DNA from: Lachnospiraceae bacterium
GTDB lineage: Bacteria; Bacillota; Clostridia; Lachnospirales; Lachnospiraceae
Assembly (NCBI GenBank): GCA_030527685.1
Contig: JAUNAG010000013.1
Coordinates: 1-32,067 of the forward strand
Direction: 5' to 3'
DNA: 32,067 nucleotides
Shown in pieces: positions 1,401 to 12,020 of this stretch; positions within the stretch are counted from its first letter, which is position 1, and every line of letters starts with the position of its first letter. The notes beneath the pieces were generated by a model. That model did not search any database. It was not told where the DNA came from and saw only the letters and a program-made list of their open reading frames with translations. A program made the position numbers and the translations under genes.

Positions 1401-2630
1401 TTACTGTGATCTCGCATTGTCAGAGACCTGAATATCAAGATGCAGCACCTCTGCCATATACTTCATTGCGCATCCGCTGAATGAAAGATGCGGATAACCC
1501 GGCTGTGCCTTGACCCACTTGAAGAAGTCCTTCATTACCTCTTCCTTGTTCAGCAGCTCATCACGGAACATACCGTTAAACTGCAGACCCGGATCAAGGA
1601 GCTCAGATGCCTGTGCCTGATAGCGATTCAGAGCCTCAAAGGAGAAGTCATTCTTTGCTGCGCAGTCTGCGATGACACCTGCTGCGACCTGGCCGCCGAT
1701 CATAGCGGACGGAATGCCGTATTCGAATGCGCACTCTGCTGCCGCAATGGCATCACCGATCAGGATGGCGCCCGGATAAACGCTCTGTGCCAGCTTTCTG
1801 GAACCCGGCAGTCTCCAGCCGCGGAACTTATCGATGAGGGTTGCATTTTTCAGACGTTCCTGTCCGAATTTCGTATTATTCTTCCAATATTCATAGAACT
1901 CCATGCTGGAAAGGCCTGTTGCGCGCAGTGCCTTCTCTGTGATGGTAAGTCCCAGAACAGCCTGCTTGCCTTCATAGTGAGGATTCAGCCAGGTTGTGCA
2001 AATCGGGCTCCAGGAATCAAGTCCCATCGGAACATAATACTCTTCAGCCTGATTCGGCTCCAGTCCCTCAACTCCGTCAACATAGGCACGGAAGCAGTAC
2101 ATCACCATGTCCGGATCATCATCGAATGCGCCGAGCTGGCGTGTAAGTTCACTGTGGGAACCGTTTGCAATGACAACAACATCTGCCTCAATATCCATCG
2201 GCTCATTGTGATACAGTCCGTGAACGCCCTTTACTACACCCTTCCGCATAATCAGGCTTGTCGCTTCATAGTTTTCCATAAAGTCAGCACCCTCGCGGAT
2301 TGCCGCTCTGCGAATCTGATCATCTGTGAAACGACGCGGAGCAATCATGAACGGATCTACGTCCAGGACAATGTAATCCTCGTCACGGTCAATCAGTCTC
2401 ATGGTCTGGATATTACATGCCTGCTGAGAATACATCTGCTCGAAGCAGCCCATATCCTTCAGGATCGGATATAAACTGGAAAGATAGACACCGCCGCAGA
2501 TCTTATCACGGGGCCATGTCTCTTTATCAACAAATAAAACATCCACTCCCTGTCTTGCAAGGTAAAATGCCGCCGTACTTCCGCCCGGGCCTGCGCCGAC
2601 AACAAGAGCGGTCCTTTTGATTTTTTCCAT
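1401..2630 (-). CDS. FAD-dependent oxidoreductase, geranylgeranyl reductase/FixC-like
   Basis: Flavoprotein of 409 residues in the geranylgeranyl-reductase/FixC superfamily, whose members reduce C=C bonds or pass electrons to quinone-like acceptors. The N-terminus ALVVGAGPGGSTAA is the FAD dinucleotide-binding loop; DKICGG, after the WPR, matches the family's PRxKxCGG motif; the second FAD-binding motif appears as GDAIAAAECAFEYGIPSAM. There is no Fe-S cluster motif and no membrane segment. I place the start at 2630 because an AGGAGG site sits 8 bases upstream. An upstream ATG at 2768 in the same frame would run antisense to nothing but would overlap the ferredoxin-coding stretch in another frame, so it is rejected. 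It follows the GltD-like gene by 34 bases and is probably its electron-transfer partner. The substrate is unknown. Confidence 0.85.
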   Translation of the reverse strand: MEKIKRTALVVGAGPGGSTAAFYLARQGVDVLFVDKETWPRDKICGGVYLSSLYPILKDMGCFEQMYSQQACNIQTMRLIDRDEDYIVLDVDPFMIAPRRFTDDQIRRAAIREGADFMENYEATSLIMRKGVVKGVHGLYHNEPMDIEADVVVIANGSHSELTRQLGAFDDDPDMVMYCFRAYVDGVEGLEPNQAEEYYVPMGLDSWSPICTTWLNPHYEGKQAVLGLTITEKALRATGLSSMEFYEYWKNNTKFGQERLKNATLIDKFRGWRLPGSRKLAQSVYPGAILIGDAIAAAECAFEYGIPSAMIGGQVAAGVIADCAAKNDFSFEALNRYQAQASELLDPGLQFNGMFRDELLNKEEVMKDFFKWVKAQPGYPHLSFSGCAMKYMAEVLHLDIQVSDNARSQ

Positions 2631-2664: not shown

Positions 2665-2793
2665 TTATTTCTTAACCATCGTGATGACATCACCGGCCGG
2701 GCAAAGCGTCTGGCAGACGCCGCAGCCGATACACTTGGATGCATCAACCGACTCGTAACCGCAGGCAAGGCATCTCAGTGCTTCCTGCTCAAA
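2665..2793 (-). pseudogene. Ferredoxin-type C-terminal extension beyond the UAG, same frame
   Basis: Directly after the TAG of the GltD-like gene the same reading frame stays open for 42 codons to a TAA at 2665-2667. It encodes two CxxC-type cysteines (RCLACG), then KCIGCGVCQTLCP, a classical C-x2-C-x2-C-x3-C 4Fe-4S motif, and a short tail ending VITMVKK. Related flavoproteins carry this kind of Cys-rich tail fused to the FAD domain. There is no in-frame start codon or ribosome binding site after the TAG that would let it be made alone. It is therefore either a disabled C-terminus (one CAG to TAG change) or is made by reading through UAG. What is seen is frame continuity and motif; readthrough is inference. 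Confidence 0.75.
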
Positions 2794-4356
2794 CTATTTT
2801 TCTTTATAAGTAAACTCAACTTCATCGAAATTGCGGATGCGCTGATCTGCATCAGCCATCGGACGCTCATGACGCTGTGTCTTTCTGCGGTTGCACGGGA
2901 AGATCTTCTCATCCCTCGGTGCCATTCCGATCGAATGCTCTGTCACCGCTTTGCGTACTGTGCGCTGCTGAATAGCAGAATCCGCTGCGAATGCAGCCCT
3001 GCGTCCGCTTGCAAGTGCATCGATGACTGAGCACGGGCCGCCTGCAATATCTCCGGCATAGAATACAGTTTCCTGATCTGCCGGCGGATAAATGTTGTCT
3101 GCATACTGTCCGATTGCAACGATGCAGAACTGTGTCGGAATATGAACAACCTGGTTTTCATCAGTCTCAAAATGAATCTTTCCTGCCTCATCCTTTTCGA
3201 AGGATGTGACCTTCATGAAATCGATGCCTTCCAGAGTATTGACTCTGCCGGTATATGCCTTGGGGCTGTAGCCTTCCATAAAGACAACGCCTTCTTCAGC
3301 TGCTTCTTCCTTTTCCCACTTATGGGCCGGAACATATTCGCCTTCTTCGACGCATACGACAGTAACCTTGGAAGCGCCCATACGAAGAGCAGCTCTTGCT
3401 GTATCCATCGCAACCGAACCGCCGCCGATGACAACGCCTTCTTTACCTTCCACAACAAAGTTCTGGTGAGGCATACGCATTGTGGCCTGATCGTTGTTCA
3501 TGAAATCCATGAACTGAATTGCAGTATAAACGGCATCGTAATTCCACTTCTTAACCCATGTAATTTCCTTGCCGTGAGGAGTTCCTGCTGCAACGATGAC
3601 TGCGTCATATTCATCTTTCAGCTCTTCAATCTGCTTCTTGCCGAGGCGGGAAGCACAGCGGATCTTCAGACCTGCCTGCTGAAGCTTCTCGATATCCTTC
3701 TTTACGGCACTGCGATCAAGTCTGAATTCCGGAATTCCGCGAACCAGCATGCCACCCGGTTCCGTATTTCCTTCAAATACAGTGACATCATATCCCATCA
3801 TGGACAGGAAATGTCCGGCGGAAAGGCCTGCCGGGCCTGCACCGATGACGGCAATCTTCTCATCATAGATATGCGGATAAGCCGGAAGCTTATAGTCAAC
3901 ATTCTCTCCGAGGAATCTCTTGATTCCGCGGATTGCCATCGGATCATCTACGAGAACACCGCGCTTACAGACCTGTTCACACGGATGATGGCAAATGTGT
4001 GAGCAGACGGAAGGAAGCGGATTCTTTTCCCAGATCAGCTTATAAGCTTCTTCTCTCTTACCGTTCCGTGCAAGACCGATATAGCCCTGCGGACTGATTC
4101 CGAGAGGACAGGCTGTTGTGCATGACTGCTTTGTGCAGAACGCATCAATATCGTCCAGACGCATAACCGGCTGTTCCGTACACTCCGGACATACGCGGCA
4201 GATCTGACGCTGCAGTTCAACAATTGCCTCCGTCGGGCAGTTCTCTCTGCAGGTTCCGCAGTTAACGCATTTCTTCGAGTTGATGTGGGCGACATAATCG
4301 CGCAGAGGCACAGCTGCTACGGGCTGTGTGTCCACATTGCCTTTGTTGCTATTCAT
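2794..4356 (-). CDS. GltD-like NAD(P)-dependent iron-sulfur flavoprotein, ending at an in-frame UAG
   Basis: Soluble oxidoreductase of 520 residues related to the glutamate synthase small subunit and other NAD(P)H:acceptor flavoproteins. In order: a 4Fe-4S motif C30-x2-C33-x2-C36-x3-C40; more cysteines at 53, 56, 59, 74, 79 and 83; the GltD-type cluster region C118/C122/C126/C130; the FAD loop AVIGAGPAGLSAG near 169-181; the NAD(P) loop GVVIGGGSVAMDTA; and the C-terminal FAD motif YAGDIAGG. Known relatives use NAD(P)H to reduce flavin and Fe-S clusters and then a partner. No glutamate synthase large subunit is nearby, so glutamate synthesis is unlikely. The frame stops at TAG (2794-2796), but without it would continue into a ferredoxin domain (see 2665-2793). 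It has its own promoter and a downstream FixC-like partner. Confidence 0.88.
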   Translation of the reverse strand: MNSNKGNVDTQPVAAVPLRDYVAHINSKKCVNCGTCRENCPTEAIVELQRQICRVCPECTEQPVMRLDDIDAFCTKQSCTTACPLGISPQGYIGLARNGKREEAYKLIWEKNPLPSVCSHICHHPCEQVCKRGVLVDDPMAIRGIKRFLGENVDYKLPAYPHIYDEKIAVIGAGPAGLSAGHFLSMMGYDVTVFEGNTEPGGMLVRGIPEFRLDRSAVKKDIEKLQQAGLKIRCASRLGKKQIEELKDEYDAVIVAAGTPHGKEITWVKKWNYDAVYTAIQFMDFMNNDQATMRMPHQNFVVEGKEGVVIGGGSVAMDTARAALRMGASKVTVVCVEEGEYVPAHKWEKEEAAEEGVVFMEGYSPKAYTGRVNTLEGIDFMKVTSFEKDEAGKIHFETDENQVVHIPTQFCIVAIGQYADNIYPPADQETVFYAGDIAGGPCSVIDALASGRRAAFAADSAIQQRTVRKAVTEHSIGMAPRDEKIFPCNRRKTQRHERPMADADQRIRNFDEVEFTYKEK

Positions 4357-11673: not shown

Positions 11674-12020
11674 CCGCGGCGGGGTATACGGTCGCGGGGA
11701 GTTTCCTTTGCGGAAACTTCACGAGGAAAGTCCGGGCTTCACAGGGCAGGATGCCGGATAACGTCCGGCAGGGGTAACCCTCGGGAAAGCGCAGCAGAAA
11801 ACAACCGCCTCTTTTGAGGTAAGGGTGAAAAGGCAGTGTAAGAGACTACCGCCTCGCTGGTAACAGGGAGGGCATATGCAAGCCCCATCCGAAGCAAGAC
11901 TGAATAGGAGCGCAGGCGGCCCGCTCATGCTCCAGGTAAGTTGCTTGAGCCGTTCGGCGACGGACGGCCTAGACAGATGACCGTACACGACAGAACCCGG
12001 CTTATCGCCCCACCGCATTT
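11674..12020 (+). ncRNA. rnpB: RNase P RNA, bacterial type A
   Basis: Catalytic RNA that matures the 5' end of tRNA precursors. The universal motifs are present in order: GAGGAAAGTCCGGGC near 11723, GGTAACAGGGAGGGC, GAAGCAAGACTGAATAG-like J regions, the CCA-binding loop segment around CCAGGTAAG, and AGACAGATGACCGT followed by GACAGAACCCGGCTTAT near the 3' end. The terminal P1 helix can be seen: GCGG-GGGG at 11676-11684 pairs with CCCC-CCGC at 12008-12016 with one mismatch. The A-type architecture fits Clostridia rather than Bacilli. A hairpin terminator follows about 50 bases on. Ends are approximate to a few bases. Confidence 0.95.

What the first reader, a model, noticed from the sequence alone, without database searches (positions are those of the whole stretch)
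2665..2830. In-frame UAG followed by an intact ferredoxin domain in the GltD-like gene
The frame ends TTT ACT TAT AAA GAA AAA TAG, then continues open for 42 codons with a full 4Fe-4S motif. The UAG falls in the linker just before the Cys-rich tail, where related proteins (as I recall them) often have Gln, so CAG to TAG is the simplest change. All of the other complete coding genes identified here end in UAA or UGA; this is the only UAG. That is what one expects if UAG is rarely a stop, or reassigned to Gln or pyrrolysine, but it also fits plain rarity of UAG plus a nonsense mutation.
Basis: partly seen in the sequence, partly recalled or inferred. Interest (0 to 1): 0.72.

Follow-up and report, generated by a model that had tools for sequence, protein, structure and literature searches.

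The report
Nonsense codon before a ferredoxin tail
A redox-enzyme gene of an unnamed bacterium carries a UAG stop codon just before its last iron-sulphur segment; the evidence points to one recent nonsense change (or a strain or assembly variant), not to a changed genetic code, although this genome and its genus use UAG unusually rarely.

Summary
On the minus strand, TAG at 2796-2794 interrupts a GltD/NfnA-type FAD/Fe-S oxidoreductase; the frame then stays open for 42 codons, carrying CxxC plus CxxCxxCxxxCP, to TAA at 2667-2665. The four orthologues found have no stop there: three have Gln (CAG), one Arg (CGG).

Reassignment is not supported. RF1 is intact, PylS absent, no CUA tRNA found (tRNA set incomplete). 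Among 301 TAGs tested in 815 kb, none clearly lies between coding-like flanks (the window's own just misses the cut). UAG also ends other genes here: a DUF5711 protein whose domain ends just before the TAG, and a RecF-like gene.

Best reading: one recent nonsense change, or a strain or assembly variant, that removes the tail. Low-level read-through is possible but unshown.

UAG ends 0.4 to 1.8% of called genes in the sampled 31% of this genome (2 of 498 to 9 of 515, by caller setting), about 3 to 6% in 22 congeners and 14 to 23% in 12 other family members, although TAG is 13% of stop triplets in its own non-coding DNA. The cause is not known.

The parts
2797..4356 (-). 520-codon 5' part of a GltD/NfnA-type oxidoreductase: N-terminal 4Fe-4S, Fer4_20, FAD/NAD(P) domain
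   Evidence: solved relatives include NfnA/NfnI, dihydropyrimidine dehydrogenase and glutamate synthase small subunit
2794..2796 (-). in-frame TAG, codon 521
   Evidence: orthologue codons CAG, CAG, CAG, CGG
2668..2793 (-). 42-codon in-frame tail with CxxC and CxxCxxCxxxCP; no in-frame ATG/GTG/TTG before codon 560, so with standard starts it needs read-through to be made
   Evidence: Fer4_2/Fer4_6 hits
2665..2667 (-). TAA that ends the tail frame
1401..2630 (-). next gene of the pair: intact FAD oxidoreductase of the geranylgeranyl-reductase/FixC superfamily, ATG start and TAA stop; a relative follows the orthologue in all four loci

Best explanation
A single nonsense change in the linker before the C-terminal Fe-S segment; a C-to-T change in a CAG Gln codon is the simplest, judging by three of four orthologues. 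RF1 is present and UAG ends other genes of this genome, so most ribosomes should stop here and give a 520-residue protein that keeps its N-terminal cluster and FAD/NAD(P) domains but lacks the terminal Fe-S segment. The downstream FAD gene has its own start and is intact. The change is recent, or is a strain or assembly variant, because the frame holds no second lesion and all six tail cysteines remain. Shown: sequence, homology, RF1, UAG as a stop elsewhere, rarity of UAG. Inferred: direction and age of the change, truncation of the protein, loss of the tail's electron-transfer role.
For: Orthologues without a stop, with CAG (3 of 4) or CGG (1 of 4) at the column. Gln is almost only CAG here (5,553 CAG, 77 CAA in 187,033 codons), so C-to-T changes at Gln codons nearly always give TAG. 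RF1 present with GGQ and a PxT-type motif (PET, as in 20 of 29 congeners compared). UAG ends a DUF5711 gene whose domain match runs to the model's last position at residue 389 of 390, and a RecF-like gene. PylS absent. No CUA tRNA found. 0 of 301 TAGs tested have coding-like flanks above the cut on both sides. No unusual RNA fold after the TAG, z = -0.17. Tail, window versus G022: 14 nonsynonymous and 8 synonymous codon differences against 69 and 116 in the body (Fisher 0.02), as relaxed constraint would give.
Against: The relaxed-constraint signal is weak: the other two window pairs are not significant (0.22 and 0.18), the private-change test gives p = 0.085, and the pairs are not independent. 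All six tail cysteines are kept. UAG is rare here, so weak termination at UAG cannot be excluded. No reads were available, so a base error cannot be told from a real variant.
Confidence: 0.7

Rival explanations
1. Leaky or regulated read-through: UAG terminates poorly in this lineage and a share of ribosomes inserts an amino acid (probably Gln by near-cognate tRNA-Gln CUG), giving some full-length enzyme.
For: UAG ends only 2 of 498 to 9 of 515 called genes here, far below the 13.4% share of TAG among stop triplets in its own non-coding DNA (p below 1e-20 for 8 of 620 and for 9 of 515), so it is avoided as a stop. The tail frame, its cysteines and its TAA are intact. The tail cannot start on its own with standard start codons.
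Against: RF1 keeps its motifs. UAG ends other genes, among them a RecF-like one. No special RNA fold. No second clear case in 815 kb. No orthologue has the stop. Across 31 genomes the CAG share of Gln correlates only weakly with UAG rarity (rho -0.37, p 0.04), and two family members with about 0.9 CAG use UAG freely: 11 of 43 and 6 of 12 genes.
Confidence: 0.11
2. Base-calling, assembly or minority-strain artefact in a draft assembly (203 contigs, 90.8% complete).
For: Draft assembly; one substitution suffices; no other damage in the gene.
Against: The surrounding frame is clean; window GC is 0.499 against 0.497 for the other sampled loci of this genome, so no sign of a foreign contig.
Confidence: 0.17
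3. Genome-wide reassignment of UAG to Gln or pyrrolysine.
For: UAG is rare as a stop; Gln at the site in 3 of 4 orthologues.
Against: UAG ends other genes of this genome; 0 of 301 TAGs tested have coding-like flanks above the cut on both sides, the window's own just missing it; RF1 present; no PylS; no CUA tRNA found, though 7 of 20 isotypes are missing from the tRNA set.
Confidence: 0.01

Closest known systems
In-frame nonsense substitutions in bacterial protein-coding genes (PMC7918605; outline and abstract seen)
   Same: One stop codon in an otherwise conserved frame, with coding sequence kept downstream.
   Different: Here in a genome that uses UAG very rarely; only four orthologues could be compared and none has the stop.
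GltD / NfnA / YgfK-type FAD-Fe-S oxidoreductases (NCBIfam PRK12771, gltA, Se_ygfK; PDB 9n5u, 5jca, 2vdc)
   Same: Fer4_20 plus Pyr_redox core; best sequence matches.
   Different: None of the 25 NCBIfam models shown reaches its cut-off (best 336.8 of 516 bits; 34 further matches not shown); paired with a geranylgeranyl-reductase-like FAD gene; rare distribution.
Pyrrolysine-using or UAG-reassigned codes
   Same: UAG rare as a stop.
   Different: RF1 kept, PylS absent, UAG still ends several genes, no other clear sense UAG found.

Membership tests
UAG-reassigned or pyrrolysine-using genome | many conserved genes with in-frame UAG | tested here: not met
   of 6,617 TAGs in 815 kb (of 2.63 Mb), 301 are open on both sides and outside called genes; 0 have coding-like flanks above the cut on both sides (window TAG 0.18 and 0.10, just under)
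UAG-reassigned or pyrrolysine-using genome | UAG no longer ends genes | tested here: not met
   DUF5711 gene (domain match to the model's last position at residue 389 of 390) and a RecF-like gene end in TAG
UAG-reassigned or pyrrolysine-using genome | CUA-anticodon tRNA (and PylS for pyrrolysine) | tested here: inconclusive
   PylS not met. 27 tRNA matches, no CUA anticodon; pattern gives one tRNA-Trp and two places without a tRNA. The tRNA set lacks 7 of 20 isotypes and the pattern asks for A37
UAG-reassigned or pyrrolysine-using genome | RF1 lost or altered | tested here: not met
Nonsense mutation / pseudogene | orthologues without the stop, with a sense codon one step away | tested here: met
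   CAG in 3 of 4 orthologues, CGG (two steps) in 1
Nonsense mutation / pseudogene | relaxed constraint after the stop | tested here: inconclusive
   one of three window comparisons p = 0.02; private changes p = 0.085
Programmed read-through | stop and signal conserved between species | tested here: not met
   none of four orthologues has a stop there; fold z = -0.17
Programmed read-through | full-length protein made | not testable with these tools
   needs proteomics
GltD/NfnA-type oxidoreductase superfamily | Fer4_20 + Pyr_redox core | tested here: met

The most novel reading that the evidence does not exclude
This lineage is on the way to losing a stop codon: UAG has become very rare while RF1 is still present, termination at UAG is weak, and the in-frame UAG is tolerated because it is partly read as Gln. 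That would be an early stage of codon capture in a bacterium of ordinary genome size (2.6 Mb).
Probability: 0.06. Interest if true: 0.8.

Novelty: new member of a known kind. Interest (0 to 1): 0.28.

Why it matters
As a nonsense change it is ordinary. What deserves a follow-up is that UAG makes up about 0.4 to 1.8% of stops in the sampled part of this genome and about 3 to 6% in its genus with RF1 intact, whereas passages of a review (PMC9348620) give about 20% for bacteria, little affected by GC. If the low use holds in closed genomes, the genus would be a natural test bed for theories of stop-codon loss and of demand for RF1.

Tried and rejected
Frameshift instead of a nonsense codon: rejected, the tail is in the same frame. 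Pyrrolysine or Gln reassignment: rejected as above. Separate translation of the tail: no in-frame ATG/GTG/TTG until codon 560. RNA read-through signal: none seen. Foreign contig: GC of the window and of the other sampled loci match. Heavy CAG use with abundant tRNA-Gln(CUG) as the cause of UAG rarity: weak, some relatives with similar CAG bias use UAG freely. PF01406 was searched by mistake; it is a tRNA-synthetase family that says nothing here. Plasmids gave only matches under 60% identity by protein and none by DNA; viral contigs gave none. The word Lachnospiraceae in the paper search was my guess. No structure was predicted.

Looser settings give 4 of 581, 8 of 620, and 9 of 515 with a longest-ORF caller, and some of the added TAG-ended genes are plainly real.

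Rows dropped before counts: loci of 3,000 bases or less (4 of 60 in G000, 3 of the family set); L159 of one family genome was left out and counted both ways (no material change); one search left out loci under 6,000 bases in its per-genome table and gave 11 of 288 (20 genus genomes) and 27 of 149 (11 family genomes). Gene calls are from my own simple callers, not a standard annotation.

Full report
Observation. The window is contig C102 of a draft genome (2.63 Mb, 203 contigs, 90.8% complete). On the minus strand an ORF starts at ATG 4356 and meets TAG at 2796-2794 after 520 codons. Read with X at that codon it runs 42 codons further in the same frame to TAA 2667-2665 and ends RCLACGYESVDASKCIGCGVCQTLCPAGDVITMVKK. 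Pfam finds an N-terminal 4Fe-4S segment, Fer4_20, Pyr_redox domains and C-terminal Fer4-type matches at 536-555; the 520-aa product alone loses only the C-terminal Fe-S matches. The best NCBIfam model is PRK12771, NAD(P)-binding protein, at 336.8 bits against a cut-off of 516, and none of the 25 models shown (of 59 matched) reaches its cut-off. The nearest solved chains are NfnA, molybdopterin oxidoreductase and formate dehydrogenase subunits, dihydropyrimidine dehydrogenase and glutamate synthase small subunits. The following gene (1401-2630) is an intact FAD oxidoreductase of the geranylgeranyl-reductase superfamily, and a relative of it follows the orthologue in all four loci found.

Orthologues. 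The gene is rare. Of 42 same-genus genomes 3 have it, the own one included (G022 at 78% over residues 19-563; G432, a partial copy at 74% over 218-563). Of 392 genomes of the order only the own one reaches E 1e-120. Of 391 genomes of the class the own one and G519, at 57%, reach E 1e-100. One scan of genome contigs gave one locus at 80%, L047, filed under a Brocadia MAG. None of these four is interrupted in the part seen. At the TAG column they have CAG (G022, G432, G519) and CGG (L047). All six tail cysteines are shared by the four. In one search (61 genomes, 58 with a match; not all matches are listed) no other listed match carries an internal TAG; three listed ones carry a TGA or a TGA and a TAA.

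Is UAG a stop here, and how often? With a strict codon-usage caller on 60 stretches (815 kb, 31% of the genome) the stops are 245 TAA, 240 TGA, 2 TAG; on the 56 stretches over 3 kb, 252, 244 and 2 of 498. That filter is too strict: looser settings give TAG in 4 of 581, 8 of 620 and 8 of 586 genes, and a longest-ORF caller 9 of 515 and 6 of 362, at least one of which looks like a spurious frame. Of five TAG-ended ORFs scanned against Pfam (the window gene was not among them), three are clearly real: a CotH protein (L107), a DUF5711 protein whose domain match runs to the model's last position at residue 389 of 390 (L106), and a RecF-like protein (L132); one has only a sub-threshold match (L119) and one none (L065). 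So UAG is a working stop, but a rare one. In 22 other same-genus genomes the same settings give 15 of 494 to 31 of 537 (3.0 to 5.8%; 6.0% with 300-codon ORFs), in 12 family members of other genera 14 to 23% over all settings (for example 27 of 119 and 27 of 147). At the 0.0 threshold the own genome is below its genus (8 of 620 against 25 of 660, p 0.005) and the genus below the family (25 of 660 against 33 of 181, p 1e-9). The genus is not uniform: G027 has 0 of 55 and G017 0 of 46, but G013 5 of 39. TAG is 13.4% of stop triplets in the non-coding DNA of the same loci. TAG and CTA triplets are under-represented throughout (observed/expected 0.44), but that does not explain the gap.

Is UAG sense? 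RF1 (prfA) is intact with GGQ; its PET tripeptide is found in 20 of 29 congeners compared, and GGQ in 29 of 29. Of 42 genus genomes, 37 (own included) gave an RF1 match, all without internal stops. PylS has no match at E 0.001; the control rings in 13 of 14 genomes but passes the cut-off in one only. The 27 tRNA matches include no CUA anticodon, but seven isotypes (Asn, Asp, Cys, His, Ile, Phe, Tyr) are missing. A CUA-loop/T-loop pattern found three places: one lies in tRNA-Trp, two hold no tRNA. Of 6,617 TAG triplets in the 815 kb, 301 are open for 25 codons on both sides and outside called genes; 0 have coding-like flanks above the cut on both sides, the window's own just missing it (0.18 and 0.10), against 7 TGA and 9 TAA. 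This is not what a reassigned codon looks like.

What happens at this TAG. Gln codons in the sampled genes are 5,553 CAG and 77 CAA, so a C-to-T change at a Gln codon nearly always creates TAG; three orthologues have CAG here. A single nonsense change is the simplest account. Constraint on the tail is ambiguous: window against G022 gives 14 nonsynonymous and 8 synonymous codon differences in the tail against 69 and 116 in the body (p 0.02); against L047 and G432 p is 0.22 and 0.18; private changes are 5 of 30 in the tail against 15 of 211 in the body (p 0.085). Predicted RNA structure after the TAG is no stronger than in shuffles (z -0.17). The base after the stop is U; from recall, that is not a weak-termination context in bacteria.

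Literature. The paper searches, seen as listings, showed no title or abstract start about UAG loss in such bacteria; most subscription papers are not held, so absence from print is not claimed. Passages of PMC9348620 give TAG usage as about 20% and unresponsive to GC in bacteria. Passages of PMC8789281 say the same trend holds in 3' UTR sequence. The abstract of PMC7918605 reports that in-frame stops in bacterial genes are widespread and that many keep dN/dS below 1, which is also a point for the read-through rival. Passages of PMC8629427 say its screen does not model termination, and blame stops in pseudogenes for false calls in some yeasts. Passages of PMC12421855 concern prfB.

Verdict. A true in-frame UAG in this assembly, most likely one recent nonsense change or a strain or assembly variant, in a genome and genus that use UAG rarely but still as a stop. 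The first is ordinary; the second is unusual and unexplained.

Noticed in passing
56 sampled loci of the window's genome, 44 loci of 22 congeners, 14 loci of 12 family members: UAG stops are rare in this genome (2 of 498 to 9 of 515 by caller setting) and low in the genus (15 of 494 to 31 of 537) against, for example, 27 of 119 and 27 of 147 in other family members, with RF1 intact.
   Followed up: partly
sampled genes of the window's genome: Gln is encoded by CAG 5,553 times and CAA 77 times, while GAG is only 0.555 of Glu codons; the CAG share is also high in congeners and several family members.
   Followed up: partly
L097, minus strand, upstream of 2466: prfB carries a CTTTGA site about 49 bases before the first downstream ATG of the ORF, as expected for the RF2 frameshift.
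   Followed up: no
L047 (PHFX01000042.1): A contig filed under a Candidatus Brocadia MAG carries this gene pair at 80% and 91% identity, so it may be misbinned.
   Followed up: no
window 1401-2630 versus L047: The downstream FAD gene is 91% identical to L047 while the upstream gene is only 80%, though both genes are about equally far from G022.
   Followed up: no
window 11676-12020, + strand: Bacterial class A RNase P RNA (305.2 bits).
   Followed up: no
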